Shown here in pieces: positions 8,236 to 37,687 of a stretch of DNA of 39,643 nucleotides. The notes beneath the pieces were generated by a model. The model searched no databases and was not told the DNA's origin. It saw only the letters and a program-made list of their open reading frames with translations. Source of the DNA: Saccoglossus kowalevskii (Eukaryota > Hemichordata > Enteropneusta > Harrimaniidae); NCBI RefSeq assembly GCF_000003605.2, contig NW_003106600.1, forward strand, positions 287,884-327,526. Direction: 5' to 3'. The position numbers and the translations under genes are program-made. Within the stretch, counting starts at the first letter, position 1. Every line of letters begins with the position of its first letter.

Positions 8236-8334
8236 AAGGGAAACACAGCACTCCATATTGCATCTTTGGCAGGACAGAAAGACATTGTAAAAGTACTAGT
8301 AGAACATGAAGCTAATGTTAACGTACAATCACAG
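8236..8334 (+). CDS. ANK: Ankyrin exon 1 of window: ankyrin repeat 3
   Basis: A 99-bp phase-0 exon between TTTCCAG and GTAAGA. It encodes one 33-residue repeat starting [16 protein letters not shown] and ending NVNVQSQ, which corresponds to repeat 3 of canonical 24-repeat ankyrins. Repeats 1 and 2 are therefore upstream of the window or unrecognised in the first 8 kb. A pearl-like element abuts its acceptor region. Confidence 0.95.
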
Positions 8335-11300
8335 GTAAGAATACTGTACAGCCTCTTGTCTTTTGCTGTTTTGTGTGGATGAAAATGAATTTACGAACAG
8401 AGTGCTGAACTGAGCATTTTTGGTATGTTACACAGAAGTGTTTACATTTGTTATTTGAATATTTGGTTACAGTCTATTTCAAGATGGTCTCCTTGTTGAG
8501 CACATTGCTTTAGGGAGATTCCTAAAACATGTTTACAACCTGCCCATTCCTTTTAAACAGTCATTACTTCTCCTGTGAATGGAGGTGATAAACAGCAACA
8601 TATTTACAGTTAATAAGCAAACAGAATTTATTCTAAGGGATAAACAAAGATTTGTTTGCGTCTATTTTTTTTATTATTCTGGAAAAAATTTTTGTTGAGA
8701 AAAATATTCTCACACAAATCTCAAACAAGTCAATTATTACAGTACCATAGTAAAAGCAGATAATTATATTTAAAACATAAATAACTCCATGCCTGTTGTC
8801 ACTCACAGTTGTCAAATTTGAAGCTATTTATAGCCCTAAATAGACTTGATTTCTTTGCAGTGTGTTGAACCAACCAGTGCCCATAGAGTGATCAACAACA
8901 TAAACTTTGTCTCCAAACTCACTATATAATTCATTTATTCAGTCTGTCTTTCATATCTCGTCTACTTATTAATCAGTGAAATAGTGTTTTAGAAAATCAC
9001 TATAATTCAATTCTGCATAATACAGTAGGCTCATTTGTACTCATCCACTTTGGTACGAGTTTAATATCCTGTTTGAAAATTGGTTTCATGTCAGGGGGCT
9101 CCACACCTCAACCTAGTTTAGTTGATTGTGTTCTTAGTTTCTACAGTGTATCTTACCTTGATTATCTGGTTTATATGTTCTGGACTAGATTTGAACAATA
9201 TGAATAACGCCTACCCGGTATTTGGATTAGGATCAGGTCATTTTGGAGCACTGGACCAATGCTGAACCAGTGCTGGGCTCGTACTGGACCAATGCTGAAC
9301 CAGTGCTGGGCTAGTACTGGACCAATGCTGAACCAGTGCTGGGCTAGTACTGGACCAATGCTGAACCAGTGCTGGGCTAGTGCTGGCCTAGTACTGGACC
9401 AATGCTGGGCTAGTGCTGGACCAGTACTGAACCAATCCTGGACCAATCCTGGACCAATGCTGAACCAGTGCTGGGCTAGTGCTGGGCTAGTGCTGGGCTA
9501 GTGCTGGGCTAGTGCTGGGCTAGTGCTGGGCTAGTGCGGGCCCAGTGCGGGCCCAGTGCTGGCCCAGTGCTGGCCCAGTGCTGGCCCAGTGCTGGCCCAG
9601 TGCTGGACTAGTGCGGGCCCAGTGCGGGGCCAATGCTGGCCCAGTGCGGGGCCAATGTGGGGACAATATTGGACATTGTCGGAAACTATTATGGACCATT
9701 ACTAAAAAATATGGCTGATCTCTATTTTAGATCAGTAACTTTGACTACAGCCATACTTAAACCTGTCAAAAACTATTGTGAACCATTTCTGCAATATTAT
9801 ATTGAATTTCCATTCCCGAGTAATAGCTAGGACAAAAAATTTACCAGGGTCAAAACAACTGAACCAATACTAGACACTGGAGTACAACTGTTAGGGCATG
9901 TACAGTTTAGTTATTTGCTGGGTTTTATTCTCACTTATTTTGCTGAAAACTAATGTGCTAAATTAAAGTCTAGTGATGAGAAAGAATTAACAACAGAATA
10001 TATTATTTCCTTCACAAATTTAAAATCTAGTACATATCCATGCAACATCAAATTAAATCCAGTGATGCCATAGTTGACTCCTACCGTATTTGCTTTATTA
10101 GTAGTGCATACACTTTAAGATGCTCTTGTAATAGAGTAAATATGGTATACAAAAAACAATCAACAAAAATTGAAACTGCCGTAAGTGGCGTTCATGTTAC
10201 TGGCACATGCGGAGAGTTGGGACTGAATTGGCATGTTCCGTAACAAGTACGTGAGCAGTCGTCACATGCCGAAAAAAACTTGATCTCTGCAAACATGAAG
10301 TATTAAAATTGTTGGCTTGTGCCGAGATCCTGTAATATAAACGTTGCTGTAAAGAACTGTTTATTGGTGATCTCTAGAAGTATGGAACAACCACCACCCC
10401 CTCCCTCTGGCACATAAGATCAACAGTACCACACATTGTAACCTGGCAACCTGAGTAACGGAAACTGTCTACTATTACCACATGTCAATAGTGATAACAG
10501 AAATATACTTCTTATCTGTAGAAAACATGTATATTTATTTGTGTATCCCTGTCTGCAGTTATATAACTTTAGTCAAAGAGTAATTTTATATGATGAAATC
10601 CTTCAGCTCACTGGTAGTAGTCTTTGAGATAATAAACAAATCTTGTTTTTAAATTAACCACTGTAATAGTTTTAGTGTTTGTTATCAGAAAACTTTACAG
10701 GAAATGGGTTTGTTTTACTAATGTGCTCAGCTAGCTGCATGACTGGAGATACTTTGAGAGGAATGAAATTCAGAGCTAAATGATGTAAATAAATGATGTT
10801 GCTCTTGAATACAGTTGTTTTGCATAACTTGACTATGCAAAAAAAACATCAGTCCCTAAAATTCCAGTTTATTCTGTAATTGATATTTTTTTCTTGACCG
10901 CGAAGTTGTACAGGGCAGTATGAGAAAAAACAGATTAATTTGACTGGAATTTAGTTTCACATTAATTTCTATTATTGATGAAAATTCTTTTTTTTTTTCT
11001 TTTCAGACTGGTTTTACACCACTCTACATGGCAGCACAAGAAAACCATGAATCCGTGGTTCGATTTTTGCTAGTGAATGGAGCAAATCAAAGCCTTGCCA
11101 CCGAGGTGAGATTATACTTTGGGATACTTTGCTTCGCACTGACATCCTCTCACTTGAGTATATTTGTCTAGATTTTAAACAAATTTTAACTCCTGTGTAA
11201 CTGTCAAATTGAACATTTTTCGATTCCATAATTTTCTATGCCAAAATCCTTTGCAATAATTTGGACATTTTTATGTTTTCTATAATTTTTTATGTATTTT

Positions 11301-14300
11301 CGAATTGTTTGGACATAAATTCCCCATTGGCTATAGGTCTTGGCATATTTTGTGATTTTGTACTTCAAAGAGTTAACAAACCAATACGAAAAACAGCTGA
11401 TGATTTTGTAAATTGTGTTAGCTTTTGGAAAGTGTTGAGACTTAAGAAAGGGAATATGTAGATTTCACAGTGTACAAAAGAATATACAATGGTGTTCAGC
11501 CTAGTATTGAAAATTTAACTATATGCTTCATTACAAACCACATTTATTTATGCACTGTATTCCCTTTTCTGTCCCTCTTGCTTAAAAAAACATTGGTAGA
11601 ACTTTGATAAAATATAAAATGATTAGCAGCTCAAAGGTCAAGGGTCAAATTACTAATAATTCCTGTTGGGACCATAACATGACTGATGTTTCCAAGCTGT
11701 TAGATATCTTGAACTTTGATCTTAAATGTCAAACAAAATTAGAAAAGTGTCCTATTTTTAAACAAAGTTGTGGTTTTGTAACATTTGTAACTTCTTATCC
11801 CACAAGATTTTGTGATTAAATTGAGGAAAATTATAACCTTTTAAGGAGGTCAGAGAAGTTGTGTAATAATAACGTAAGTTGTCAGAGGGACACCAACACC
11901 ACCTCCCGCCCCAACCCCCACATAAGAGATTTGTAGTTCTTGAACATTTTGGCAGTAATCTTCCTGTTTACAACTGACCTATAATTGTATCCATACACCA
12001 TGTTCCTTATTAAATAAAATAGTCTAAGCTGTAAGCATTATTTGTAGGATTTTAAAATGTTATTTATTTTTTATTTACTAGGATGGGTTTACTCCATTGG
12101 CGGTTGCTTTGCAACAAGGACACGACAAAGTGGTGGCACTATTATTAGAAAACGACCGTGCCGGCAAAGTAAGACTTCCGGCTTTGCACATAGCGGCAAG
12201 AAAAGATGACACTAAGGCGGCTGCCTTATTACTTCAAAATGACCACAATCCTGATGTCACTTCTAAGGTAAACACATTTTCAGAAAGTTATCATTTCTCA
12301 TCCTTCCTTCCAGTGTGGCCCATATTCATACGCACTAAAACCCTTCCTTTCCCACACATTCTATTCCCATTGATGAAAGATGGCATGGTGTACATGTATG
12401 AGACAATCTAAAGACATCTTTCATTTCATCCATTAGAATATTACTACTAAGTTCTTGTATCTAAGTTACTTTTGTGAAATGTACTCCGTACTCTTAAAAC
12501 TAGTCCACACTTTTAGGAACCATATTGGGGGGAATGTATTGACACCAATTCCGTGATTGTGAACTTCCACCATATTTTCCTGTCCTACTGCTAGGATCAT
12601 TATGCCTTAGTACTCAATACCAACATATTATTGTTTTCAGAGTGGCTTCACACCATTGCATATTGCAGCACACTATGGACATACCAATGTAGCTACGCTG
12701 CTATTACAAAGAGGAGCTGCTGTTGATTTTTCAGCTCGGGTAAGGTTTTTTTTTCTATTGGAAAGTAATATTAGCACATCAATAAGCAGATTATTTGTTT
12801 CATATTGAGCAAATTATTAAAAATCATTCAGAGATTGTTATGTAGTCAATGATTGCAAATCATTTCCTGATATGTTCTTTGCTTTTTGCCCCAGATAATG
12901 ATTTCAGATCATTTTAAGATGATTGGATCTCGGCTTAATTGAATAATGATACACAATGATTTCAATTTTCTCCTTAGAATGGAATTACCCCATTGCACGT
13001 TTCTTGTAAGTGGGGTCGTGTCAATATGGTAACATTATTACTGGATAGAGGAGCCAAAATCGACAGCAGAACAAGGGTAAGCCTTCATTCTTTATTTCGA
13101 GTTGATTTGAATTAATTCTAATTAATATGATCAGTATTAGGAAACCTTTACAGAGAACAAGATGCCACAAATGAGACAATTTTAATTGCCCCTTTCACAT
13201 TTGAGAAACTTATTAGGATGCCGCTATCTCCATTGTACAGCTTGCCATACTTTCCTTCTGATTTCAGCTTTATAATTTTTAATTTAGAAACTTTATTTTG
13301 TGTGTTAAAGCTTGAGAAAAAAGTTTAAACATTTTTATTGAGTAGTTTAAGCATGCTTTTCATTTGATTTTTACCTTAATTGCTGCTTTTATATTAAATT
13401 TGTTTTTTTTGTTTACCTGTTTAGTTTCCTGTCTATTTGCCTATTATTGCCTGCAAATTTATTTTCTCCTGTCATCCAAATTTTAAAAACCATGGCAGTT
13501 TTTATGGTGATATATATATATATTTTTGTATTGCTTCCTAAGTGATTTCTTATGCTCTGCAGCCTATTCTCCCTATTTCTTCTGTGGAATCATCTAACCA
13601 TTCAAAGAAATAGTTGGAATGTCCCATTGTGCAAGGGGATATAGGGTGAATAGGTTAATATTGCATGTGCTACCATTTTACATACTCTAACATGCATTTC
13701 TACACATTTCCCATAGAATCCATTGGAACTGGTGACAAAAGTGAGTTTTGTTGAGTTACTGAGCCTCTTTAATACGTGACTGGGTGCTCAAAATCAGCAT
13801 TTCACTCCTCTTCATCTACTGTATACTGCCCTCACTGGCAATGCTTGCACATTTGTCGGCCATGATGGATTTGACTACTTGCATATTAAAAAAAATATTA
13901 ACCTGTATTAGGAACTGATTTTGAATTTTGTGGGGAATAGAACTTCAGTAAATGCTAGTCTACTAATCCACCATGGCTTGTATGAATGCGATTCTCCATG
14001 ATTTTATCATGGAAGTGACAACAGAAATCTTGGAAGTTATAGAATGTAGCTACCTTGAAATCAGCAAAGGTGTGAGATATATTTAATCATGACAAGAATG
14101 GGAACTTAGATTATACACCATGCTGATTATTTTTGGAATTTTTCACCAAGTTAGGTGGTAATGCTCACTTGCATGAGGTATACATGAATCCTATTTGTTG
14201 ATATTGGAGAGAAGTGAAATATGAGTACCTAGGTGTATGTAAAATGAACCCTTACTTCGCTTAATGTCTACATTTCCCTATACATCACTAACTTATTTTG

Positions 14301-17300
14301 TTTTGGACTAAATTTAAATGAGTTTGCTGGAAGGAGCAGATAATTTGACTCGTTTATATTTCATTATCATTTGTTGTTGCCAGCTGTGAGATCTTTTACT
14401 CACTCATTCTTGCTCAGTTTTTTTTCGGCATTTTTGGCACATTAATAAAATGGAAAATATAAGTAGGAAATCCTAGATATCCAATTTTGACCCCTATTTT
14501 TTTAAAATATTTTTTATGAGAATGAAGTGTAAATTGTTGAGCTTAGTAAGGGATGTCCAAGTAGGATTGCATCAAAACTACTTCACTAACATATTTTACT
14601 CAAAAAATATGTTGTAGTGAATTAATAATAAATTGATGTCATTCTTATTTATTTATTTTGATCTTTTTTTTCTTGCTTATAACAAATCTTTACCAACAAA
14701 TATTTGGTGGGGAAACGTTATGTGAAGCGAGCTGAAGATCGTAGCTTCATTATTAATATATTCTGTTTTGTGTTGTGTTGTTATTTGTAAGTTGTAATTT
14801 TATGTCTGTGAAAAAAGTCAGTTCTGTCAAAATAACTTATTTGTTGTATAAGGCAATTTTTTGGGTATTTTCTGATTTCAAACTATTTTGGGTTTTTGGT
14901 GTCTAGATTTCTTGTCTCGCTTAATAACATAATACATTTTGCTCTATGTACAAAATTAAATACAACAACTTTTTTCATCAACTTTAAATTATAGAAAAAA
15001 GTGTTTCAAAGTAGTATTCTACATGTATCAGAATTGATGCACTCTTTCTCTTTCCATGGAAATAATTTTCTGACTGCTGCATGCTTCTATCATTGCATAG
15101 ACTCACAGTACCATAGTTTCACACATATTAGAAAAATAAATTCTAATGTGGTTGCCTAGAGACCATCTGATGTGTTTGCTTAGAGACCATCATGAATTTC
15201 AGAACGATGTCAATGCTTGTTTTTCTTTTTTTTACTGAAAAAGTATCTGCTCTCTGCTCCTTGCAAAATACGTATTAACATTTAGTCCTCAAAACCACTA
15301 GAAAAATGGGTAAAACAATTTACTATGCTCACTAATGTAGATGTAGTTGTAACATTTCCCACACAAATTGCTATACTTTTATTTTGGATGTTGTTTCTGA
15401 AAGTTTTAATTGGAACACAAAGCTACTGAAATCTGGAATTTCTGTCTGAAAAGAAAGAAAAAATTTTGTTGGAAATGTTGAGGTTCTTTGTTTTTAGGTG
15501 GTGGTGGGTATTTTTGGCTGATTTCAATGAAAATTAATTTTGTGTTTGAACTTTACCAACAGGATGGACTGACACCTCTTCACTGCGCTGCAAGGAGTGG
15601 TCATGACCAGTGTGTTGATTTGCTACTGGAGAGAGGAGCACCTATTTTGGCCAAAACTAAGAATGGTCTTGCACCTTTACACATGGCAGCACAAGGAGAC
15701 CATGTAGATAGTGCACGTTTATTACTCTATCACAAAGCACCTGTTGATGATGTCACCGTGGTAAGTTCTAAAAAATGTGCTGATGCATTGTTAAGATTTT
15801 CCCATTGAATTTATTAAAATTTCCATGATGTAGTTGAACTTTGTTTTCACTTTCATCAAAGCCGGTGATTGCATGTTGAGTCCCTGGGGTTTTTCTATGA
15901 GCGCCACTAAGCGCCACTAAGTGGGGGAGATAAGATGTGGAGTTTTTGATAATTATAAGTTAAAATGGAGCTTCCTATGCCTTCCTTGGGGCCAAAATTA
16001 CTATCAGACAGGTCACAGTTGAAGACTGTTCCCACATCAGAATTTAATGGTTGCCAGAGGATCTGCTCCCCAGGGTAAGGGGGCGCATGGCCATTGCATG
16101 AGTCCTGTGCCCTCGTACCCTTGTTAAAAAAAGTCCTATTTTGTGGATTATGTTCATTAACTTGTCAATTCATTTGACGTGCAATTGGACGATATTGAGA
16201 TTTATCAAGTTAGCCACAGTTTGTATCATTTCTATATTTTCTTGCAGGATTACCTGACTTCATTGCATGTAGCTGCTCACTGTGGTCATCATAAAGTAGC
16301 TAAATTGCTGTTGGATCGTAAGGCTAACCCTGATTCCCGTGCTCTCAATGGTTTCACCCCACTTCATGTTGCCTGCAAAAAGAATCGCATCAAAGTCATA
16401 GAACTATTATTAAAGTATGGTGCATCAATCCACACTGTTACCGAGGTAAGTAATCATAAATACTTTATTTAAGTTGGAATTAATTTTTGCTGAAAAGACA
16501 TTTTGACTGTTTTGTATGAAATTTATTTTCACTAATTTTTGACAATTGAATGTAAAATGTAGGAAAAACAGTATGCACATGTATTTGCTGGATTTTATTT
16601 TCACTGAATCATTCCTTCAGCGAAAATAGCAAAAATGAATCCAAGTGAAAATAAAGTATTTTACAGTAGCCATTATCCTTGAATTGATGGTATGATTACA
16701 ACCCCTACAATGTCAGTTTTGTACTGACTTGAAATCAATTACTGATAAATCAAATTTCCATTTCATTTTATCGCATTGTTCTTTTTATAGTCTGGTTTAA
16801 CACCATTACACGTAGCTGCATTTATGGGTCATGTACAGATTGTATTATTGCTGTTACAACATGGAGCATCACCTGACACAGCTAATGTGGTAAGTTGTAT
16901 AATTCACTACTCTCTCCCAGTCTTAAACCACTACCTTCTAGTTCACTCTTTTAGTCTTTTTTGCTATTTTATCTGGCCAGATGACTACCTCTTCCGCCAT
17001 ACAGAGCCCGACCCCCACCCACCACTGTCATCTATTTCCCCTGTACACTGCATTTTTTCTAACCAACTGCCTATAGTCCACGCCACACCATGTTTATTCT
17101 GTCTTGTGTTTCCCTATTGTCTTTCTACGTACTATCCATGGTGTGGAGAGTTCGCTCCGCTCCGGTCTGTCCGTTCCGGTCTGTCCGCTCCGGTCTGTCC
17201 GCTCCGGTCTGTCCGCTCCGGTCTGTCCGCTCCGGTCTGTCCGCTCCGGTCTGTCCGCTCCGGTCTGTCCGCTCCGGTCAGTCCACTCCGGTCAGTCCAC

Positions 17301-20300
17301 TCCGGTCAGTCCACTCCGGTCAGTCCACTCCGGTCAGTCCACTCCGGTCAGTCCACTCCGGTCAGTCCACTCCGGTCAGTCCGTTCTGGTCAATCCGTTC
17401 TGGTCAAGAGTGAAGAATGGAATGTTAATTTATTTTTTGTTGGAGCTTACCTCTAATTTTGTTTTTACAGCGTGGTGAAACAGCCTTACATCTTGCCGCA
17501 AGAGCCAATCAAATTGATATCATTCGTATCTTATTACGCAATGGTGCCCAGGTAGATGCAAGAGCACGCGAGAACCAGACTCCACTGCATATTGCTTCCC
17601 GTCTGGGTAACGTGGAAATTGTCTTATTACTGTTGCAACACGGCGCATCACCTGATGCACAAACAAAGGATATGTACACAGCCCTGCATATTGCGGCCAA
17701 AGAAGGACAAGAAGATGTAGCATCTGTCCTACTAGAACACGGTGCATCGCTATCCACAACTACCAAGGTGAGTTAGAATATCTGTGCATTCATGATTATC
17801 AAATAAAGCCCTGATTTTATTGGTTATTTTGTATTTTTGAATACTGCAGCAAAATTACTTTTCTAGTATAGTAAGTAAATACGTATTGGTATATGACATG
17901 TGTACAAATAGCTGTGAAATTAATTTAGGTTCCAGATGCTGTTTATATTTGCATATCATAAACATCGCTACATTTTACTCTTTGGTACCATAAATGTCAT
18001 CATGAAGCAATTATCAGAAATTTTTTTTTTTTTTCACGAATAACAGAAGGGGTTCACTCCTCTGCATGTGGCGGCGAAGTATGGAAGTCTAGAAGTCGCA
18101 GCTTTGCTCCTCAAGAAAGTTTGCCTCTCCTGATGCAGCTGGAAGGGTATGTTACTGTGATACTTGGCGCGAATTCAAATGTTGGAAAAAAAGGCAAATT
18201 ATTAAAATTTTTAGGTCCGTTGTCATCATAAGATTTCTCACTTCAATGATATTTACATCTTGACTTTTACAGAATGGTTTGACACCATTGCACGTTGCTG
18301 CCCATTATGACAATGTCAATGTTGCTATGCTGTTATTAAAACAAGGTGCTTCACCACACGCTGCAGCCAAGGTAATTTGTTATCTAGATCTTTTTTCTTC
18401 CTCCGACAACCAGAGTGAAAACCAATGCACGGCATAATATTTATTTACCAAAAAGGACTGCAAAAAGTTTGTCATGTTTGGCCTCTATTTCATCAGAACA
18501 GCCATAATGACATTATTCACATGATAGGTTTAATTTTACCAACTGTTTTCAACTTTTATTTTACTCTCAGAATGGATTTACTCCACTACACATCGCTGCC
18601 AAGAAGAACCAGATGGAGATTGCCACCACATTACTGGAATTTGGAGCCGAAGCAAATGCAACGACTAAACATGGAATTAGTCCAGTCCACTTAGCGGCCC
18701 AGGAAGGACACACAGACATGCTAACATTGTTACTGGCCCGTGGTGCTAAGCCAGACATTCCTGCTAAGGTAAATTGTCACTGCTTTTAGCATCCAGTCAA
18801 TTGTTTTCAACAATTTTTATCAAAAAGATTCGGAGATAAAAATTATGGCGTTCAGTGAGTTAAGCTTTTAATAATACCGTAATAGGTTTTTCATTTTTGT
18901 GAAGTTATTATAGGACACACATCCTGGTACTTTGCCTGACCCCTAAAGGTCACTCATCCTGGTACTTTGCCTGACCCCTAAAGGTCACTCATCCTGGTAC
19001 TTTGCATGACCCCTAAGGTTACTCTCTGGTTCTTTAATGGGGGGGGGCATATATTTACTATCAGAATTTCTTAATTATTTAACAATTTATCATATCCAAA
19101 CTTTTGAGAATTAATGTTGAAAGATACTACCCCCAGAATTACCAGGATGCCTGACTGTTAGGGGTCACCATGGGTTATGTGAACCAAATTTTCTGCAAAT
19201 GTATCCGTGCATTGGAAAATGTTTTCTTATTTCATCAGATATTTTCATATAGTTAATGCTTTCTCCTGAAATTCACAGAATGGTTTAACTCCATTGCATC
19301 TTGCGGCTCAAGAAGATAGAGTTAACTGTGCAGCCATATTGTTGAAAACGATGCTGTCATCGATGCACAGACTAAAGCTGGATATACTCCTTTACATGTT
19401 GCTTGTCACTATGGCAACATTAAGGTGGCAACCTATTTATTGCAGCAAGAAGCAAAGGTTAATGAAAAGACTAAGGTGAGAAAAAATAATACCAATCCAA
19501 AGTTCAATTTTCTCTTGTTTGTCAGAATATTTATTTCAAGAGTTGCAATGTGTTTATAGTTGATCAATAAAGCTGTATTTTGGATAGGCTCATTTAGGTC
19601 ATTTTCCTTTGTGCATTTATCACTTGTCTTTGACACTTGTCTTATAATGTTTCAAAACAAGTTTTTAAAAATAAAAATTAAATTTGTATATTAATGTTAT
19701 TGTTTCGTAGGCTGGCCTGACTCCACTCCATCAAGCTGCCCAGCAAGGTCATGTTGCCCTGATTAATCTGTTACTACAGTACGGTGCTGACCCCAATGAA
19801 GTCGCCAATAACGGATACACAGCATTGGCCATGGCTAAGCGTCTTGGCTACATCTCTGTTGTAAATACTCTGATAACCGTGACAACAGTTACTACGGTAA
19901 CTACACAGGTAAGTCTATGTCTGGAATTTTTCTACACCAGAAAATGGAATTATCGCAAGAATTACCGCAAATGCATACCAGTCAATCAATCAATCCCCAT
20001 ACTGCCTTCCAGCATACTTTGTGATATTTTCATAGTATTCATAAAACTAAGATGTACAATTTAATACACATTTATTAGATAACTTATGTTAAATCTTGTT
20101 CATGGTAGTGGTGATATGGTGGTGAGCAGATCACAAATTCCCACTCTATACAATGGAATGAATTCATCTCATTGCTTTGTATTCTTATCTTTGTACAGAC
20201 TGATAAAGAAGAAAAACTCAAAGTCTTGGTTCCAGAAACCATGCAAGAAACATTCATATCAGACTCTGAAGATGAAGGTAAGTGTAGTAGAGTTGGATTT

Positions 20301-23300
20301 TTGGGAATATTTGTGTTTTTAAAAATGTTAGAAAAGGTAAAGACCCGAATTAACCACAAAGTATAGGGAATATTTAGTATTAATGGAGTTAGCTTGTAGC
20401 ATGCCATTGCAGCACATAGACTCTACTCTAATCTTATCAAATCTACTGCTTGTTATGTGTTCTTCACTTTGCCTGCCCTATTGTTTACGTTCGTACCATG
20501 TGCTTGATTGGTTGCAGCATTCTGCACAATTACAATTCATACTTTTTCTTTTCTAATGTGTATTTTTCAATAATTAATTTATTCCAGCACGTACATTTTG
20601 ATAATTTTATTAAATGTTTTGTTCAGTTGATCAGAGTAACTCTGGCTTATTTGGTGCTGTTTAAATCTAGTTTAACAAACGTACACAATTATGAGTACTT
20701 AATTTCACTGACCTTTAATTTCACCATTTGGTGTTTATAGTCTATTTTACTGGGTTCATAAACAGTTTCTATTGTTATTTTACATAGTTATGTGATTTTT
20801 ATTTAGTGGATTTAACAGCAAAATTATAACCCAGTGAAAAATAGATTTATGGTATCCTCAAATTCTCGCTGTACAGTGGCCATCATGTGCTACTCGTACA
20901 TCAAATACTGTATTATTACTACATCTTCTTTGAGCTTTCTTTTCCTGATGTATGTTTCGAAAGTTTGTTTCAGTTTTGGTCACATCAGTCTTCAATAAGC
21001 CAGTGTCACTTTTTATTAACATTCACTTATTTTAACTATGTGGTTAATGTTTGTAATATTGCTTTCTTGTTAATGCTTGCTGTATGTCCTGCACTGTATG
21101 TTGTCTTGTACATAGGTATGGATTCCATTATTTACCTTCCACAGTCACCTCTGTGGCTTCCTTCATATGCTGGACTTGATAAAACCTATAATAATACCAC
21201 CATGAACACATTTACGTTTCGTAAGTCTGTGTCATTTTAAAGCTGTCGCTACAGCTGTTGTGTTTTGTAGATGGTTTCATCACTTGAACGTCATCATTAT
21301 TTTGTTAATGTATAATGTTTGCAAATTTTCCATTTTGTTTGCAGTATGTTATTTTACTCTCTTTACTAGGGAGTCTAGTAATTTGGATTCCCTAGATAAC
21401 TAGAAGTTTTCTGTTAAAACTGTTACAACACTCAATAAATATTGCTGGCTAAATGCAAATGTAAAATTTTCACCAGTGATAAAATCTTGCAATTATTGAG
21501 ACGAATGTTAAGTTATATACCACCAATTCATAATAATCATTTGAACAATAAATTCAACTTTTGTCACTTTTAACAAAATAAAAAATGCATATTTCTTCTA
21601 ATTGTTTCCGAAACTGTTAATCACTTACTGATAATCCAGAATTTGAAATGAAATTATAAAAAATAAGTATGAGCAAAATGACATTTGATAGGTTAACAGA
21701 ATGTTCAGTGGCTTTGGTTGATTTATGCTGTTAACTGCTAATGGATTGGAAAGAGTTCTTTCAGGCCCCCTCACCCCTAACCTGAACCCTAACACTTCAG
21801 CCCCCTCAATGTAATTCAATATGCCCCTCCAAATGATTAAGTGACCTAAAGAGGGGTATATATAATTGAAACAGAGGAGGGGTACTTGAGGGTTAGGATT
21901 TGATTTACAGGTGAGCGGAGCCCTAAGGAACTCTTACGTCATAGGGATACTGCACTAGCTTTACTAATAGGTGGCTTAAGGTAACAGCAGCTAAGCCAAT
22001 GAAATGCAATGCTCATGTAGTATTCACTCCATGTGGCAAATATTTAGAAGTACTAACCCAACATGATGCTATTTTATTAAATGGATTCGCCCCTGGTGCA
22101 ATACTAATGAGTCTACATTAAGTACAATGTGTGGTTTTCTGAACATGAAAGACTCAGTCATGCATTGCCTTTTCCATCTAAACCCAGTGGTAGTAGCCTC
22201 AGTGTCTTAAAATTACATTCCCACTTTGCAAATTTACATCACTCTCACAAGCTAAAAATATCAAATAATATATTGTTGGAAGTTATCCTGCTCTCACTTT
22301 CCACACATTTCATTTGGAAGGTACTGGAGGTTCTTATCCTGTTGACTGTCTCCAAGGACAAACAAAGCCTTCTAACTTGGTGTTTATTTTTACAAATCTA
22401 CTTCAATTTAGAAGACCAATTTTTTCATTACTGATTCATTATCCCAACATTTGATTATATATTGGTCAAAGGAGGGTATTTTACAAATTTGCAAATAGTG
22501 AATGCAACTTTAATACGGTAATCCCTCATCTGCACAGAATAATCCTTCAGGGGCATATTGAAAGATGAAAATCATGTTGTAAATTTTTAGGTGAAGATAC
22601 TATGACTGGTGACATGCCTACCTTAACAGTGGACGAAATGAAAAACATGGCTGATGACTCCATGCCTGTTTTACAGTCAATGACCATAGAGGAAGTATGG
22701 ATGAAAAGTGATCAGGTAAAACTTCTCAAAAAGATTCTTGAATATTTGATAGTGTATGATGTCATTTCTTTTTTACTGGTTGAGATTTATGTGACATACA
22801 GAAGACATGAAAGCAAACATTCATTCACAGGAACAACAATTTGATTATGTAGATGTTTGTTGCCTAGAAGATAGCAAACCCCCCAAAAAAGTTATTTTAT
22901 TTATGGAGATCTACTGATGAAAACAAGAGTTATGTGTGAACACCTTCTGTTCACACACAGGATAGATTTTCTATTAAAATGTATGTATTTTAGGAAAGGT
23001 GTCTTCTTGGGACTATCAAGATAGTAAAGGACAGAAACAAAATCAAGTTTCACATTCTGACACAGCATTCTGCCATCAGACTGGTTAATACTGCTTCTAT
23101 GCTACAAATCTTAACATATTTGTTTTCATTTTCAGAGTCGTCTTACCAACTATGCTTACCCACCGTATGCAGGAGGTGAATCACCAAGTTCTTCAGCAAG
23201 AGGTTCCATGCCAGGTTATTACAGATCTGCTGCATACACCTCGTACTCCTCCAAGACTGGAAGTGTAGAACCAGAAGTTTTGAAAGCTGATAGGGCTGTG

Positions 23301-26300
23301 CAGCAGTCGGCTGCACCTGGCATGGCTGAGACTGATATGGTAACAAAGACGACTGAAGTTACCATCATAACGACCTGGAGGACCGTCATCCGTAATAAAG
23401 ATGGTGAAATAATGAGGAAACCTGATGGGAATGTCGCACATGTTGGTGATCCGTTCCAGGATGAAGATGGGAAAGAAGTTGCCGGTAAGGTGTATGGACC
23501 AGATGGTAAACCAATGGAATACACCATATATCTGCAAATGATTAAAGTTCATCGCATTATGATCCGAGATAATGATGGCCATCCAAAGAAGACTCCAGAT
23601 GGGCGACCGATGTATGCTGGTGATCCAGTTGTTGATGAAGAAGGACGTGTAATTGAAGGGATGGTTTATGGTCTTGAAGGCGAGTCTGTCACATATGAAG
23701 ATTACTTATCCACAGCTGCTGAAACTAGGGAACCAGTACTTGGAGATGATGGTGAGGAATTGAAAACCGCTGATGGTCGTCCAATTCGACCTGGAGATCC
23801 AGTTATTGATGAGGACGGTAAAGTGGTCAAGGATTTGGTCTATGGTCTGGATGGCAAACCAGTACAGTACACTATGTTTTATACAACAGTCATCGTCACA
23901 CGTCAGATCATAAGAGGTCCTGATGGTCTGCCAATGTATACAGCCGATGGAAGACCGATTGTTGCTGGTGATCCGGTTGTTGACGAAGATGGTGTGGTAC
24001 GACAAGATATGGTCTATAACTTAGAAGGTAAACCTGTACCTGTATACGAATACTATATAACTACAATTACAAGGTCGGTAATCAAAGGTCCCGATGGAGA
24101 ACCACTGAAAACCGCTGATGGTCGTAACGTACATCCAGGTGATCCTGTCGTTGATGAAGACGGCAAGCTGGTGAAAGGTATGGTGTACAATCGTGACGGC
24201 AAACCAGTCAAATATACTGAATACTTTATTACTATTACTGTTACAAGAAAAATAATTCTCGGACCCGATGGTAAGCCGCTGAAAACCGCAGACGGAAGAC
24301 CAATGTATCCTGGTGATCCAGTTGTTGAAAAAGATGGTACTGTTGTACAAGGAATGGTGTATGGGGAGGACGGAAAGCCACTTCCTTATGAAGAGTTCTA
24401 CTCCACTAATGCCAATGCAATATTAAGAACCCCTGTGATTGGCCAAGACGGGGAGCCAATGATCACTAAAGATGGTAGAGTTATGTACGCTGGTGATCCA
24501 GTCGTGGATGATAACGGTAAAGTTTTGCATGGACTTGTGTATGGCTATGACGGTAGACCAGTTCCTTATAGCGAGTTCTACACGCACTCTACTCGAACTA
24601 CAACAACTACAACGACTACCACAAGTACAGTAACAAGAGTATCCGTGAAAGATAAAGACGGTTATCCGATGAAAACTCCAAAAGGTCAATTTATTTATGC
24701 CGGTGACCCCTACATGGATGAAGATGGGACTTATATTCCTGGGATGGTCTACGGCCACTACGGCCAACCGGTGACGTACAGCACCTTTTACTCTGAAACC
24801 ACAACCACCAAAATCTCTGTCGAACCTGTAATCGGGCCCGATGGAAAACCAATGAGACGACCTGATGGTAAAATCATCTATGTCGGTGATGCTGTTGTTA
24901 ATGAAAAGGGTCAGGTAATACCAGGAATGATTTACGGACCAGACGGTAAACCAGTTCCGTTTGTACAAGATAATGTTGCACCCATATCCATTCCAGTACA
25001 TGCTGGGTAAGTTGATATTGCATCGTTGTTATTTTTATTTTCAAAACGTGTAAATTGTATACAAGTGTGATGACGATGATTATACAACAACACCTTAGAA
25101 ATAAATGAGCATCAAAATCTCATTGAGAGCAAGTGAAAGAGCCATCAATGTAACCATTGTATTTGACCAGTAGAGCGTGTATCGTCTTGGATGAATGATG
25201 TTTAATTTGCCTGAAATAAAAAATTCACTTATGTAAATGAGAGGCATGTCTATTATCAAACTGTCATATTATAGTGTACAACAAATTACAACGTAGTTTA
25301 TTAGAGATATGATTCTCATGACGTAAATATGGCGTATTATAAATATGACATACTTTGTTTATTTGGTGAGACCAGTTTATAACATAACCGAAGATTTTCA
25401 TGAACACAAAAAACATACAAAATAGTCATTTTTATTGCAATATAGCGATTAATTATTAAAATATTACTTATGTTGGCCATAAAAAAAATGTCTAATTTAC
25501 CTAGTTAAGTGCATTGGCTACTTGTAGAGGTATATACCTTGCGAATCTAGTAAAACGTAACAAAGTAATTGTATGTATTTTCGTACGGATTTTCACTATT
25601 TATCTTGAAATTAAGAACAAATAAAATATTGTACTTGAATAATTCTCACTGTGATTTTTTTCCCTCGACAGATTCCTTATCAGTTTTATGGTAGATGCTC
25701 GTGGTGGAGCCATGCGTGGTTGCCGTCTTCCTGGGCTTCGTATTATCGTTCCACCAGGGAAGGCGACCGGGCCAACTCGCATCACCTGCCGCATGATAAA
25801 GAGAATGAAACTAGTTAACCCACCCCCATTGATGGAAGGTGAAGCCCTCGCCAGTCGTGTACTGGAAGTTGGACCTTCTGGTGCTCAATTCCTCGGGTAA
25901 GTTGAACAGGGGTTCGTCTGTTATAACATTGTTAGAAAAAAATATATATAACCCATTCCCTGATTGGCTAATAAGAGTAATGATATCTGTAATCCATATG
26001 TGTGGCAATCTGAAATTGATGAATTGATCTGCCAATTGGAAACACTGTTACTGAAATTGATGAATTCATCTGCCATTTGGAAACACTGTTACATTCTTTC
26101 TACCAAGATGTTGTACATTATTGTCCTGTTGTATGTGGTAAGTGTTAGAGCATAGAAAGCTGTGTTGTGGATCTTCCTTGGTTTTTTGTTACCTTTGATG
26201 TCTACTAGGTGGAAGTCTGTGAAGAGACAGCATGTTGTGTTTCGTATCCATGCATGTTGTAATGGGATCATTGATTGTCTTTCTCTATTAACATAACAAT

Positions 26301-29300
26301 GTTCATTTCAAAATATATCCATTTTTCGGTTTCATTAATTCTTTTCTGCAATAAATTTCCTTACAATGTTTCCAAATTCCTTCATTATAAATTACTGTCC
26401 ATTCTTCCACTGTGGTTCTGTGATCCCCACAAAGTAATTGTTTTCTGTAGTGTTTACTTTTACCTATCCCTTTCGTTAGTCCTTGTGTGGTTCTATTACC
26501 CCTATAAATAAATAAATCATCTGATGCTCTATGGCCTTATCATTGGTATGAAGTAAAAGATTTGCCAGTACTTTCACAAAATGAATTACCATGACCACTA
26601 CACTGAACCTATCATACTACTGTTCTCCACGCTCAGGTTTTGTCACTTCCACTATTTAATGACTACCGGTATGTTCCTGGTATTGTGGTCCTGTCACCCC
26701 ATACAAAATGAATGAATCTGTCTCCCTCATTGGTGTTGTCACCCCACTGTCCCATATACTGTGGTGCTGTCGTCCCACTGATTCTTTGTTTTATTACCCC
26801 CACAGTTTAATGAATAAGTCCCTGATAATGTGGTCTTGTCTCTTTCTTATAAAATGAATGAATCTGTCACCCCACTGTACTTCACACTGAGGTGCTGTCA
26901 CCCCCTCCTCCACAAGTCAATGATTCTGTTCTCTACATTGGCGATGTCTTCCCACTCCTTCACACTGAGGTGCTGTCACCCCCTCCCCCACAAGTCAATA
27001 ATTCTGTCTCCTACATTGGTGATGTCTTCCCACTCCTTCACACTGAGGTACTGTCCCCCCCCCCACACACACACACAAGTCAATAAGTCTGCCCTCTATA
27101 CTGGTGATGTCTTCACACAGGTGCTGTCACAATTTAATGATATTGATATTGTTTTTTTCACTTCCCTATACCCAATGAATGAATCTGATGTCACCCCCAC
27201 AATTTAATCCTGTACTGGTAGTTTTTGTTATCCCACACAAAAGTAATAAATCTGTTTCCTACTCTGTGGTGCTTGTTGATTCTTGATTTTTNNNNNNNNN
27301 NNNNNNNNNNNNNNNNNNNNNNNNNNNNNNNNNNNNNNNNNCACCCCCACAATTTAATCCTGTACTGGTAGTTTTTGTTATCCCACACAAAAGTAATAAA
27401 TCTGTTTCCTACTCTGTGGTGCTTGTTGAATTCTTGAATTTTTCGCCATTGCTGTCTCCAGTGATTCGTTTTATTTGCAGTCTTTGTTACCATGGCTATT
27501 ATTGTGAGCCACATCATTATTAACCATCTAACTATAACTATCCTTTATCAACAATGAATGCTCTTTAAATCATGGTAACCATGGTAATGATATACTATCT
27601 TTCTGAATGTATGTACCAGATTAAATTTAACTTTTTGAGTTGCCTGTGATAAATGAATGCATCGTCTTGTTTCATCTCTTGTTTCTCTTTAACATTTACA
27701 ATTAATTCATCCTTCATCCTGTCTATCAATCCGCGAACTTGACTGCCAATAGGGGTTTAGGCAACAAAGTCTACTACCACCCTCCCCTCAATGAGGGGGA
27801 GGCACTTGTGAGCCGTATTGTTGAACTCGGCCCAGCACAAGAAAAATTCTTGGGGTATGTAGTGTCAACAATTCGTATCTACAGTTGTTACATTTACCAC
27901 TTTGATAGTGCTTTTTTCCTCCTTACCTTCTTAAAGTAGTGTTTTAACTCTCCTGCACGTTTGGGTAGTCCTGTCATGTGGTGTGTACGCAATTGTTGTT
28001 GATTTTCAGTTCATTATTCGAGACAGTGTTTATGATGTTTATTAAATCGTTACAGTCGTTGTGCCACTCTGTGTTTGATACAAGTCACATGCAGTGTATA
28101 CACAATGCATGGAACATGTATTGATTGTTCATTTAAAATAAAACGCATATTGCACCTCGACTGAAGTGACGTTGACTTTCAATGTTATGTGTTGCATGTC
28201 ATGCATGTTTATAGTTGTTTTGCTTCAACGCTTTCACCCCTATCTGTGAATGGTTTGACCTATATTATTACTGGCCCATTCCAGTGGCAGTTGTGAAACT
28301 GTTGGTTTTGTATTTCATTTTGTGATTTTTAAAATACCTTAAGTTTTTATGTTTATTTTTTTGTATGGGTGAATTTAAACATTGTATAAAATTTGGAGGT
28401 TAGCATCATTGGTTTATTCTAGTTTTAAAAATTGGTTTATTCTAGTTTTATGTCTGAACATAGTTTTATTCTAGTTTAAATGAAAATTGATTTATGTACA
28501 TGTTCCAGTCAGTGTATAATAAACATCTCAGCTGTGCATGTTTTGACCCCTCCACTTGTCAACATTGACCTTTGACCTCAATTTTCATCCCCGTTAACCC
28601 TCTACCTCAAATTTCATCTCTGTTCACCTTTGACCTCAAATTTCATCTCCGTTCACCTTTGACCTCAAATTTCATCTGTTCACCTTTGACCTCAAATTTC
28701 ATCTCCGTTCACCCTTGACTACAACCTTCATCAACATTCCTAAGTAGTCATTCAGGTATCTTTATTATATCAATATTTGAATAAAAAAACAGAAATTATT
28801 ATAAATTCTGGCAGGGAAATAAAAAGATTTGAAAAATTTAGTTATTTTCATCTCCAAATATCTGGCCAGACAGGTTTGATAAATAAAATTGATAAATCAG
28901 AAATTACAGAAATTTATTAAAACACAAATCCCACATTGGTGTGTGTTCTTCCAACTTAGCACTTCTAAAAATGCCTTTGTTTACTAAATAAATTATGGTT
29001 CTGTTTGATATTTATGTTTTTTATCATAAAAAATTCCAGTTTTTATAACTATTTTTATTTATTTTTTTAAATTCTATACGCTTTCAGTCCTGTGATTATC
29101 GAGATACCACATTTTGGTTCGCTGCGTGAAAAAGAGAGAGAAATTGTTGTATTACGTAGTGACAACGGCGAATCATGGAAAGAACACACATTGGAATCTT
29201 CAGATGAGTTAGTACATGAAACGCTTAATGGTACACTTGACGGAGAAGGTAAGCGCTTTGAATGCTTGAGGAAGCTTTCAACGTTAAAGAGAGCTTTCCA

Positions 29301-32300
29301 TGCTTGAGGGAGCTTTCCATGCTTGAGGGAGCTTTCCATGCTTGAGAGAGCTTTCAACGCTAGAAGGAACTTTCCACACTAGAGACTTGTTTAAGACCAT
29401 CTTGTGTAATCTCGATAGAACATCAAATCTCAAACCATTCATTTTTGTTAATTATCAATTGCATTGTTTTCGTTTATATATTGTAAGAGACAAATATGTC
29501 CATGCAAAACTATTTTCTATTTCCACTGGAATTTTAACTAAAATATTCCTTGATTTTTAAAAAATTATTGCTGTCATGTTTCAGATCTGTCACTAATTTT
29601 CCAGACGACTGAGTTAAACATTCTGTTGCCATAATGCTAGTTATTTCTGTGCAAAACATTAACAACGTCTGTATTTTGAACTCTTAGTCTCTCATCATGC
29701 CATGAGCAAGAATGATTACAGTAGTCCTTCTCTGAACATGCTATGTTTTCTTGCAGTGTCTTATATGACCATATTCATTAAACCAATATTGCCTTTCCAG
29801 ATTTGGCATATATATATAATTTAATCATTGCCTAGTCTATAGTCCAGCAATTGTAATCACATTTTTATTGATTTCCAGAAATTGAATCATTGGAAGATTT
29901 AGTTGAAAAACGAATTTGTAGAATAGTTACCCGAGATTTCCCACAATACTTTGCTATTATCTCACGAGTACGTCAAGAAACGAATACAATTGGACCATCA
30001 GGGGGAATGTTAAGTTCAACAGTTGTTCCACAAGTACAAGCAGTGTTCCCTGAAGGTACTCTAACTAAGAAAATCAAAGTTGGTCTCCAGGTAAGTAAAT
30101 CACATGTTACATACTAGCCAGTCACATGGTACACACTAGCCAGTCACATGGTACAAACTAGCCAGTCACATGGTACAAACTAACCAGTCACATGGTGCAC
30201 ACTAGTCAGTCACATGGTGCACACTAGTCAGTCACATGGTACATACTAGCCAGTCACATGGTACACACTAGCCAGTCACATGGTACAAACTAGCCAGTCA
30301 CATGGTACAAACTAGCCAGTCACATGGTACACACTAGCCAGTCACATGGTACATACTAGCCAGTCACATGGTACATACTAGCCAGTCACATGGTACATAC
30401 TAGCCAGTCACATGGTACACACTAGCCAGTCACATGGTACACACTAGCCAGTCACAGGGTACACACTAGCCAGTCACAGGGTACACACTAGCCAGTCACA
30501 GGGTACACACTAGCCAGTCACAGGGTACACACTAGCCAGTCACAGGGTACACACTAGCCAGTCACAGGGTACACACTGGCCAGTCACAGGGTACACACTG
30601 GCCAGTCACAGGGTACACACTGGCCAGTCACAGGGTACACACTGGCCAGTCACATGGTGCACACTGGCCAGTCACATGGTGCACACTGGCCAGTCACATG
30701 GTGCACACTGGCCAGTCACATGGTGCACACTGGCCAGTCACATGGTGCACACTGGCCAGTCACATGGTGCACACTGGCCAGTCACATGAGAGATGTGAGC
30801 ACGATGCATAACTTCTAATGGTGTCTTCAATATTCTCATTTATAGGCCCAACCAATTCCAGTAGACATCATCAAGAAAGTCCTTGGTAACCGTGTAATGG
30901 TGAGTCCCATAGTGACAATAGAACCCAGGAGAAGGAAATTCCATAAAGCTATTACAGTAACAATTCCTGTTCCATCAGCAACGACGCAAGGTGTTATGAA
31001 TGGTTATGGTGGTGATACGCCAACTCTTAGACTTTTGTGCAGTATTACAGGTGAGCAATTAAAATATGAATATTATCCAATTTGATGCAATTCATTTGTT
31101 TCATTAATGTAGCTGAAATGTGCCAGTTTTTCGCAATGTCATGTTCAATGTCATTCCATTTAATATATACAACTCAACGATTAATTGTTGCATGGCAACT
31201 GTGATGCATAATCTAATACAGACAGTGGTGGTCATATTGATTTGTACACTATCCTAAAATTACCACGAGTAGCATGAGTAAATATGTTTCAATGTATTTT
31301 TTATTAGGTGGCACTCAACCCGCACAATGGGAAGACATTACTGGCACAACACCTCTTACTTTTGTCAATGAGTGTGTGTCATTTACCACCACAGTATCTG
31401 CAAGGTATGTATTGTATCAAACTTTATACCGCATTAACTTTATCAGATGCACTTGAATATTAAAACTGTTAATGACCTCACCTGAGGGCATTATAAACAA
31501 TTATTGCCCATCAAGTGACTGTTATTGACCTGAAGCTGAAGGCCAAGGAAAATAATAGTAATTCTTGGTATCAACACAATCCAAGGATAAGAACAGTAAG
31601 TATTAAAGATAACTGCCAGAACCCAAATGATGTTAGATGAAAATTACACATCGAAAAATGTTGTTCACCTTTTTATCGTCAACAACCTGTGTCATAGCAA
31701 AACGGAGAATTAAGACTGTGGCAAGAATTGTGCAAGGAGATGTAAAAATTAATAGTGAACATGATTGTGATCATGTGTTCACTTTTGACAAATAACACTG
31801 ACATTGTAATATTAAATAGCATAGTTGTCACATTAAAATCATTCAAATTCATCTAAAGATGCTGAACATCCGTGGCAATGGGTGATGTCCCGTACACTGT
31901 GCGAGTGCTGCAAAAATCTAATGATTTGATTTTGAATTAGGTTTTTATAGCGTAATGTCAAAATTCTGATTTTTGAGTGGGGTATAATATTGTGTTAAAT
32001 TATCTTTACTTTAGCACATTATTATTATCTCCTAAAATACTTTCGCATTTGTCAAATCCCATGTGACGTTTTTGACGTCACACCGATGCTATGACGCTTG
32101 TTTGTCCTGTTTTTTTTACATTTGATTTCACATCAATTGCAGGATCTCGTAGTACAAGCAAAATGGTTTCTTGTTGGACTTGGTGAAATAAATCTTTCTG
32201 TAGAATCATGCTATGTCATTGGAGTATGAAAATATGTAGTGGCAAATATTTGTGCTACATTTTTGGTGGAAAATAATTTACCTGAAAATTATAAAGGCAC

Positions 32301-33445: not shown

Positions 33446-34429
33446 GTAAGGTAAACCATTTGTCACTACTGACTTTTCTTCCAGTGCGAGTTAATTAATT
33501 ATTTGTGTATTTTTAAAGGTGTACGTCTCATGAATGTTTGTTACTGACTTTCAGATGAAGCTTCAGGTTCCTTTATGCATAGTTTCGTTACATGGCATTT
33601 CAAAGATGACATTTTGTGGATGAATATCATGTTTCTTATCATAGATGTGCTTCACTTTGCATTTTATGTGATGTTTGTTGTCTTGTTTACAATGTCCCTG
33701 CATTTTGAAACAATTGTATTAATAGTGTTGTTTTTTTTAGTTCAGCAATAGAAGCTTATTTGTTTTAATTGCTTGAAGGACTCCAATGTATCTTGTGAAG
33801 AAATTTATGAATATTCTGTGACCCTTTAATTCAGTTTCTCTATATACAACTTATCTGTCCAATCTGACTCTTGCTTCTTAAGCTATGCTACGCACAGCGG
33901 CCAAGCCAGCACGGTGATGAGCCAAGCACGGCGGCCAAGCCAGCACGGTGATGAGCCAAGCACAACTATTGAAACTTGACGATACAATGGAATCAAGCCT
34001 TGTTTGCATTTAAGTTCATTTCTTAATTATGAGGCACAACAACAAAAAGTTTGTGTTTCTGGTGTTCTTGTGATTGCAACAATCAAATGTGATCAAAACA
34101 ATCAAAAAAAAAAAATTTGTATTGTAATTCAAATAGAATTACAACAGCTGTATTTTTATTTCGATTACACCAACGCAAATTGGTACAATTACCAGCATAA
34201 AAAAATATACATTCACCAAAAAAACCCACCAGAAACATTTTTTTGTTGCTGAGTCTTTGTGTTTTTGATTTTCTGCACCTTAGACTTCTTGCTTTGCTTT
34301 TCTTTTCTTTTTAAACTGCTGGGCTCTCGTTGCTTCCTTGCATTTTGAATGTAGTATTACTGTGTGGTAGGCAGGCCTAACAGTGAAACTGACTTCTCTC
34401 TTCTCACCACTTATCAATTCATGGAAAAG
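33446..34429 (+). other. Intron with a 34-bp tandem duplication
   Basis: Two copies of a GC-rich unit containing CGGCCAAGCCAGCACGGTGA lie at about 33895-33962. Otherwise AT-rich sequence with no exon seen. Confidence 0.7.
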
Positions 34430-34468
34430 GTCAAAAAAGAAGATGACACAACAAGTAGTGAGGATGAG
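34430..34468 (+). CDS. Candidate acidic microexon after UPA
   Basis: A 39-bp phase-0 segment reading VKKEDDTTSSEDE, after a pyrimidine-rich tract and CATGGAAAAG, with donor GTAAAT. It resembles the acidic stretch that follows UPA in vertebrate ANK2/ANK3 (KESESDQEQEEE-like), which supports it. The acceptor context is mediocre. Confidence 0.55.
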
Positions 34469-36028: not shown

Positions 36029-36049
36029 GAGACTATGGAAAAGGGAGAG
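36029..36049 (+). CDS. Weak candidate microexon
   Basis: A 21-bp phase-0 segment reading ETMEKGE between TTGCTTCTATAG and GTAGGG. The donor is weak. It is listed because size, phase and acidic content fit the neighbouring candidates. Confidence 0.25.
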
Positions 36050-37248: not shown

Positions 37249-37338
37249 GCAGCCATGACAACGGCAGCCATGACAACGGCAGCCATGACAATGGCAGCCA
37301 TGACAACGGCAGCCATGACAATGGCAGCCATGACAACA
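37249..37338. repeat. 15-bp tandem repeat, six copies
   Basis: Units of GCAGCCATGACAACG with C/T variants at the fourteenth base. There is no supporting splice site, so I treat it as intronic. Confidence 0.9.
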
Positions 37339-37466
37339 GTGGTGAAAGGGTTACTCTAGCTGTTAATTGGTATTAACAAATGTGTCATAAAATATCTTGG
37401 AATTATTTACTAACTATAACTATGACTAACCTACTTATTCTTTGTAACTTTTCCCATTATTCATAG

Positions 37467-37484
37467 CGGGAAATTTTTGAACAG
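37467..37484 (+). CDS. Candidate microexon
   Basis: An 18-bp phase-0 segment reading REIFEQ between a good acceptor (TTCCCATTATTCATAG) and the donor GTACTT. Very short; splice-site quality and phase are the only evidence. Confidence 0.35.
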
Positions 37485-37687
37485 GTACTTATTCGTGTGC
37501 ACATATTCACCCCCCCCCCCACCCGAGTATAATCCCATCCTGCTGTAATTACCAAAAATTGTATCTCAAACCTTAAATCTTCCCGTCTGAAATCATATTA
37601 AAATGTGTATATTTATTGATTTAATTCGTCTGTATCGATATAATTGAGTTCAGATATTTGTCTTTATTCATTTTCCATGTAACTCAG

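What the first reader, a model, noticed from the sequence alone, without database searches (positions are those of the whole stretch)
23136..25006. Nine-fold DG-rich repeat domain spliced into the ankyrin linker
Exon 17 places nine ~58-residue modules (GPDGKP...TADGRP...[12 protein letters not shown]...GMVYGxDGKPVPY) between the ankyrin repeats and ZU5. Vertebrate, fly and worm ankyrins, as I know them, have only a short linker there. The frame is open throughout, GDP spacing is regular, and copies differ in DNA while keeping residues. The regular DG turns suggest a beta-rich repeat rod that spaces the membrane-binding and spectrin-binding halves. The DxDG loops also raise the possibility of calcium binding. 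Both roles are speculation.
Basis: partly seen in the sequence, partly recalled or inferred. Interest (0 to 1): 0.88.

Follow-up and report, generated by a model that had tools for sequence, protein, structure and literature searches.

The report
Expanded repeat array in ankyrin linker
In this animal's ankyrin gene, the stretch joining the membrane-binding and skeleton-binding halves has grown to nine copies of a small, probably folded module; one other sequence, apparently the same exon from another ankyrin gene, carries a single copy, so the linker seems to change its length by adding modules.

Summary
Window 23136-25006 (+) is one open exon (623 codons) of an animal ankyrin gene, between the ANK-repeat exons and the first ZU5 exon. 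It holds nine ~58-residue modules, 36-61% identical in protein; synonymous sites are saturated or nearly so, so the copies are old and were kept as protein. No Pfam model reached its cut-off and NCBIfam listed none.

The exon is not an added cassette. It starts in phase 0 and ends in phase 2, so skipping it breaks the ZU5 frame. Its last residues ([13 protein letters not shown]) align to the end of the AnkB/AnkG linker. A 136-aa protein from a 1.6-kb public contig (P0009) looks like the same exon with ONE module. So a module already in the linker was probably multiplied to nine here.

AlphaFold2 gives a moderately confident all-beta module (pLDDT 86, pTM 0.60) with turns at the DG sites; three modules repeat the pattern without a confident arrangement (pTM 0.38). 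Best explanation: a folded beta spacer chain between the two halves of ankyrin; the spacer role is inferred. Calcium binding is poorly supported. Position and composition differ from the known giant-ankyrin exons.

The parts
8236..19908 (+). 14 ANK-repeat exons of the same gene (first at 8236-8334, last at 19711-19908)
   Evidence: Spliced product aligns to human Ankyrin-1 residues 77-848, domain score 1003 bits. Two of the exons (18047-18146 and 19279-19475) change frame inside.
20199..20277 (+). Linker exon 1 ([27 protein letters not shown]), out-phase 1
   Evidence: Aligns to the AnkB linker start [23 protein letters not shown], E 0.017 in a 142-residue query; splice sites
22591..22715 (+). 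Linker exon 2 ([41 protein letters not shown]), out-phase 0
23136..25006 (+). Last linker exon, 1871 nt, phase 0 in and phase 2 out, holding the nine modules
23136..23360 (+). N-terminal 75 residues of the exon, by eye rich in Ser, Ala, Tyr and Gly
   Evidence: Weakly similar to the N-terminal part of P0009 (18 of 2000 shuffles reach the local score, 13 of 2000 the global score)
23361..23534 (+). Module 1
23535..23708 (+). Module 2
23709..23882 (+). Module 3
23883..24056 (+). Module 4
24057..24227 (+). Module 5
24228..24401 (+). Module 6 (the one predicted alone by AlphaFold2)
24402..24581 (+). Module 7
24582..24791 (+). Module 8, begins with a Thr-rich spacer (about 12 extra residues)
24792..24974 (+). 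Module 9, groups with the single module of P0009 (support 0.77)
24969..25006 (+). Conserved linker end [12 protein letters not shown](G)
   Evidence: Aligns to DNVALSSSPIHSG of Ankyrin-2 and DNVNLVSSPVHSG of Ankyrin-3 in 6m3q and 6m3p
25672..25896 (+). First ZU5 exon, phase 2 in
   Evidence: Pfam ZU5 E 1.4e-18, 67.4 bits against cut-off 21
27753..27854 (+). Second ZU5 exon (34 residues)
   Evidence: Placed by splice sites, phase and a resemblance to vertebrate ankyrins that I recall; not covered by the best-scoring alignments
29088..33445 (+). Remaining ZU5-ZU5-UPA exons found in the window
   Evidence: Query 1519-1906 aligns to Ankyrin-2 and Ankyrin-3 structures, E 2.8e-219 to 8.2e-207

Best explanation
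This is the last linker exon of an animal ankyrin, in which a small module lying just before the conserved DNV...P.H.G|ZU5 junction was multiplied to nine copies. Each module is most likely a small beta meander in which the four DG sites are hairpin turns. The nine units, joined by short threonine-rich strands of variable length, would form a folded, extended chain. It lies after the ANK repeats and the conserved start of the linker and before ZU5, so it would work as a spacer that increases the reach between the membrane-binding and spectrin-binding halves. Shown: position, frame, obligatory splicing phase, copy number, constraint, homology of the exon end, a likely one-module relative. Predicted by program only: the beta fold. 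Inferred: the chain's extended shape and its spacer role.
For: Gene context and phases; exon end homologous to the vertebrate linker end; ANK1 has 44 residues between the two aligned blocks where the window has 620. P0009: profile E 4.1e-5 in a database of 5.8 billion, 48.8 bits for one module against at most 19.2 bits for the other nine proteins retrieved and at most 8.0 in 500 shuffles; M9 plus tail against P0009 from residue 61, global score 105, 0 of 2000 shuffles reach it. Constraint: dS saturated in 19 of 36 pairs and 1.1-3.5 in 17, with dN 0.32-0.83; D14, four turn glycines, G29-D30 and Y45 identical in 9 of 9. AlphaFold2 single module pLDDT 85.9, pTM 0.60, 55 of 58 residues at 70 or more, all beta; the same strand pattern recurs in three tandem modules. 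Under a simple pattern none of 17 internal donor-like sites is in phase 2 and neither of 2 acceptor-like sites in phase 0.
Against: The three-module model is only pLDDT 71.4, pTM 0.38, with weak junctions (below 50 at residues 58-64 and 114-122), so no rigid rod is predicted. The fold comparisons gave no support (see Tried and rejected). The alignments used for prediction came from copies within the same protein (9 and 3 rows). No transcript seen. No functional data on length. P0009 has no name, and its contig was not available to me; it was picked out with the same modules it is scored against, its module lacks the first DG turn, its N-terminal similarity is weak, and its short tail after the module is not significant alone (440 of 2000 shuffles).
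Confidence: 0.55

Rival explanations
1. The array is a multivalent docking platform: repeated modules present repeated binding sites for a partner (cytoskeletal or signalling), and length is secondary.
For: Besides the turn glycines, G29-D30 and Y45 are kept in 9 of 9 copies and V44 in 8 of 9, perhaps more than a mere spacer needs.
Against: No partner known; the conserved residues are largely turn glycines and beta-strand positions, which folding alone may explain.
Confidence: 0.2
2. The array is a regulatory linker: it folds back on the ANK groove, as autoinhibitory segments of the AnkB linker do, with many copies giving graded inhibition.
For: The vertebrate AnkB linker inhibits membrane binding (PMC3663501 and PMC5779224, passages); a similar linker start is present here.
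Against: The known AnkB inhibitory segments of the linker are disordered and lie in its N-terminal part (828-852 and 865-896 of 828-965), upstream of where this array sits; the modules are predicted folded.
Confidence: 0.12
3. Calcium-binding repeat (DxDG loops).
For: DEDG at turn 3 in 5 of 9 modules; array net charge -23.
Against: 0 hits for an EF-hand-type loop pattern; acidic positions vary (EKDG, DDNG, NEKG, DEEG) while glycines do not; xDG is explained by hairpin turns.
Confidence: 0.05
4. Artefact or unused exon: assembly error, pseudogene, or an exon rarely spliced in.
For: Two ANK exons of the same gene change frame internally; no transcript available.
Against: 623 codons open, constraint on protein, good splice sites, frame to ZU5 needs this exon; a similar exon elsewhere (P0009).
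Confidence: 0.04

Closest known systems
Canonical ankyrin linker (AnkB and AnkG)
   Same: Position between ANK repeats and ZU5; same end DNV...P[IV]H[SA]G; similar start with VPETM and DTMTGD
   Different: About 130 unstructured residues (PMC5779224 passage) against roughly 690 in my model, 538 of them modules
P0009, unnamed 136-aa protein (ncbi, ena; 1566-nt contig)
   Same: N-terminal Gly/Ser/Tyr-rich part, one module, DNV...P..AG end
   Different: One module instead of nine, first DG turn missing; source organism unknown
Giant-ankyrin long exons (Drosophila Ank2 L/XL, AnkG, C. elegans unc-44)
   Same: Ankyrin exon with, in some species, repeat arrays; the Drosophila XL array has been postulated to be a molecular spacer (PMC5135030, section 8 and part 1 of 2 of section 9 read)
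   Different: [quoted passage not shown] here between ANK and ZU5, 1.87 kb, array 7.8% Ser+Glu
GPDGKP-repeat proteins (filamin-repeat protein P0003, P0002, P0007, P0010, P0011)
   Same: Short DG-turn units
   Different: No GD...G...[VI]Y module by pattern, best single-module score 19.2 bits or less; probably convergent

Membership tests
Canonical ankyrin (ANK-ZU5-ZU5-UPA-DD) | ANK-repeat solenoid of the ankyrin type | tested here: met
   Aligned to Ankyrin-1 residues 77-848, 1003 bits; the first repeats were not found in the window
Canonical ankyrin (ANK-ZU5-ZU5-UPA-DD) | ZU5 domain after the linker | tested here: met
   Pfam ZU5 1.4e-18
Canonical ankyrin (ANK-ZU5-ZU5-UPA-DD) | ZU5-ZU5-UPA supramodule | tested here: met
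   Query 1519-1906 aligned to Ankyrin-2 and Ankyrin-3 spectrin-binding domain structures, E 8.2e-207 or lower
Canonical ankyrin (ANK-ZU5-ZU5-UPA-DD) | Death domain | tested here: inconclusive
   A crude residue pattern found none in 33447-39643; no profile search was made of that stretch and the gene may run off the window
Giant-ankyrin long exon | Position next to the death domain | tested here: not met
   Exon lies between ANK repeats and ZU5; definition from PMC5135030
Giant-ankyrin long exon | Ser+Glu near 25% and six residues (S, E, T, D, K, P) above 55% | tested here: not met
   Array: S+E 7.8%, the six 42.4%
EF-hand calcium-binding loop | Dx[DNS]x[DNS]Gx[hydrophobic]xxx[acidic] loop | tested here: not met
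   0 pattern hits; no EF-hand among the 6 Pfam rows at E up to 10
Any Pfam-A family | Score above the curated cut-off | tested here: not met
   Whole exon: best 22.9 bits against cut-off 33.6; nine modules alone: best E 0.033
Beta-hairpin solenoids (choline-binding/CROP type, Rhs/YD) | Fold similarity | tested here: inconclusive
   Such chains head the Foldseek list for the three-module model, but at E 0.08 and above with probability 0.06 or less

The most novel reading that the evidence does not exclude
An undescribed folded beta module, ancestral in the ankyrin linker of some animals and lost or absent in vertebrates, acts as a countable spacer: lineages set the distance between the membrane-binding and spectrin-binding halves of ankyrin by changing the number of modules (one in P0009, nine here).
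Probability: 0.35. Interest if true: 0.75.

Novelty: new variant of a known kind. Interest (0 to 1): 0.58.

Why it matters
Ankyrin couples membrane proteins to the spectrin skeleton. The length variation described by PMC5135030 lies next to the death domain, in sequence biased towards a few residues. A folded, copy-number-variable array between the two functional halves would set their distance directly and would separate the ANK groove from its spectrin anchor. It gives a natural test of whether the linker works by length or by autoinhibition, and the module appears to be an unnamed domain.

Tried and rejected
Pfam, NCBIfam and PHROGs on the exon, Pfam on each of the nine modules and PDB by sequence and profile: no credible family. 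Two Pfam rows (E 8.8e-5 and 2.1e-4, both below Pfam's cut-off) and two PHROG rows (E 5.6e-4 and 5.8e-4) had no stretch passing on its own; I treat them as composition matches. The PDB profile's best row was E 0.002 (ribosomal protein S3, a 22-residue match scored twice), then EZH2 at 0.016; I treat both as chance.

Protein database: full-length frame with the exon as region (5 proteins) and exon residues 85-623 (2 proteins) gave only generic DG-repeat proteins. About 8,000 candidates sharing most words were scored each time (7988, 7998, 7994), so common GPDGKP proteins may crowd out true relatives. The three-module profile (3 proteins) gave P0009 plus two generic ones. P0009 itself has no Pfam family above cut-off.

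First alignment A1 was out of register because the rows overlapped; not used. Viral-contig scans gave no confirmed relative; genome contigs with A3 none, with P0009 one locus L001, whose matched stretch on translation has a stop and no module: chance.

Papers: seven searches showed no title or abstract on a repeat module in the ANK-ZU5 linker. Lists were capped (20 of 42, 15 of 241, 10 of 25), held none, and the library lacks most subscription papers. Giant-exon origin rejected by position and composition. Organism not determined.
Full report
Gene. The window carries an animal ankyrin gene on the + strand. My in-window model has 14 ANK-repeat exons from 8236 to 19908, two small linker exons (20199-20277 and 22591-22715), the exon in question (23136-25006), and the ZU5-ZU5-UPA exons from 25672 to 33445. 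The spliced product aligns to human Ankyrin-1 from residue 77 with a domain score of 1003 bits, and its C-terminal part (query 1519-1906) to solved Ankyrin-2 and Ankyrin-3 spectrin-binding domains; the exon after the array is Pfam ZU5, E 1.4e-18. The small exon 27753-27854 is placed by phase and by recalled resemblance only. The first ANK repeats and any death domain were not found; only crude patterns were tried. The organism is unknown to me.

Observation. The exon is open for 623 codons. It contains nine modules with spacings 58, 58, 58, 57, 58, 60, 70 and 61 residues. A profile of the nine finds nine domains in this ORF and none in the other ORFs among 1,327 searched. At DNA level the array is too diverged to be listed by Tandem Repeats Finder; a simple direct-repeat search sees 8 copies of a 30-nt core, the other seven at 63-77% identity to the reference copy. 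Over all 36 pairs, protein identity is 36-61%, dN 0.32-0.83, and dS is not estimable in 19 pairs and 1.1-3.5 in 17. The copies are therefore old and constrained as protein. Since they are paralogous copies and dS is saturated, a dN/dS value is not quoted.

Module anatomy. D14, four turn glycines (module positions 15, 23, 37, 49), G29-D30 and Y45 are identical in 9 of 9 modules; the residue before the turn glycine is Asp in 9, 8, 6 and 6 of 9. AlphaFold2 on one module with the nine copies as alignment gives pLDDT 85.9 and pTM 0.60, all beta, with strands flanking the DG sites. Three tandem modules give the same pattern three times, but pLDDT 71.4 and pTM 0.38 with weak junctions: units are predicted, their mutual arrangement is not. 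The top Foldseek rows for three modules are hairpin-stack proteins, at E 0.08 and above and probability 0.06 or less, which I take only as a hint of the general type; the other fold results stand under Tried and rejected.

Not a cassette. The exon begins in phase 0 and ends in phase 2 (1871 nt), and the ZU5 exon is read in phase 2. Joining 22715 directly to 25672 reads the ZU5 exon in a frame with a stop (first frame). Under a simple pattern, none of 17 internal donor-like sites is in phase 2 and neither of 2 acceptor-like sites is in phase 0. So the exon is probably obligatory. Its last residues, [13 protein letters not shown], align to DNVALSSSPIHSG (Ankyrin-2, 6m3q) and DNVNLVSSPVHSG (Ankyrin-3, 6m3p) directly before ZU5, and the upstream linker exons match the AnkB linker start (E 0.017 on a 142-residue query, with matching residues VPETM and DTMTGD). 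The exon is thus most likely the ankyrin linker's own last exon. In ANK1, 44 residues separate the two aligned blocks, against 620 in the window.

A relative with one module. The three-module profile found P0009 (136 aa, one sequence on a 1566-nt contig, E 4.1e-5). It reads: a Gly/Ser/Tyr-rich part, then [37 protein letters not shown], then NLDNVPLTSQIPIFAG, where the predicted protein ends. One module scores 48.8 bits against the nine-module profile; the nine other proteins retrieved (P0002-P0008, P0010, P0011) reach at most 19.2 bits and 500 shuffles at most 8.0. Module 9 plus the exon end against its C-terminal part scores 105, with 0 of 2000 shuffles reaching it; the N-terminal parts are weakly similar (18 of 2000 shuffles reach the local and 13 of 2000 the global score), and the short tail after the module on its own is not significant (440 of 2000). 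In a small tree it groups with module 9, support 0.77. Its end, at the place where our exon ends in GG|GTAAGT, would fit an exon read into an intron, but I could not see the contig. My reading: the same linker exon, from another ankyrin gene, with one module. It lacks the first DG turn.

What is known. Jegla et al. 2016 (PMC5135030; section 8 and part 1 of 2 of section 9 read; [quoted passage not shown] The present array differs in position, length and composition. He et al. 2013 (PMC3663501, passages) and the eLife 2017 paper PMC5779224 (passages) report that the AnkB linker inhibits the ANK domain through disordered segments; the linker is given as about 130 residues. No title or abstract shown by seven searches (lists capped) describes a module array there; the library lacks most subscription papers, and annotated animal proteomes were not available.

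Mechanism. I favour a folded spacer chain that lengthens the reach between the two halves (0.55 for the whole statement; the anatomical part, an expanded ancestral linker module, I hold at about 0.8). Rivals are multivalent partner binding (0.2), autoinhibitory docking (0.12), calcium binding (0.05) and artefact (0.04). The calcium idea is weak: 0 EF-hand-type loops, and the DxDG motif at turn 3 is kept in 5 of 9 modules while glycines are kept in 9 of 9.

Limits. No transcript, no organism, one possible relative without a name, and structure predicted from shallow alignments of paralogous copies. Two ANK exons change frame internally (18047-18146 and 19279-19475); sequence error is the likely cause, but a damaged gene copy cannot be excluded from the window alone.

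Noticed in passing
window 18047-18146 and 19279-19475: Two ANK-repeat exons each change reading frame once inside; the other exons of my model are open, so sequence error is likely but not shown.
   Followed up: partly
window 9251-9654, 17156-17406, 30100-30788: Long minisatellites, in introns by my model, with units of 11/33, 14 and 22 nt; the 22-nt array has 31 copies at 97% matches.
   Followed up: no
window 7516-8107: 157-nt unit repeated 3.9 times (83% matches) just before the first ANK exon found.
   Followed up: no
P0003 (protein database, 241-kb contig): Protein with six filamin-repeat stretches by Pfam and a long GPDGKPL repeat stretch: another cytoskeletal-type protein with DG-turn repeats, probably convergent.
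   Followed up: partly
P0002 (protein database, 9.2-kb contig): 1328-aa protein without a Pfam family above cut-off, with GPDGKP repeats in a Ser-rich context; origin unclear.
   Followed up: no
window about 27290-27343: A run of N (50 in the window), an assembly gap in an intron of my model.
   Followed up: no
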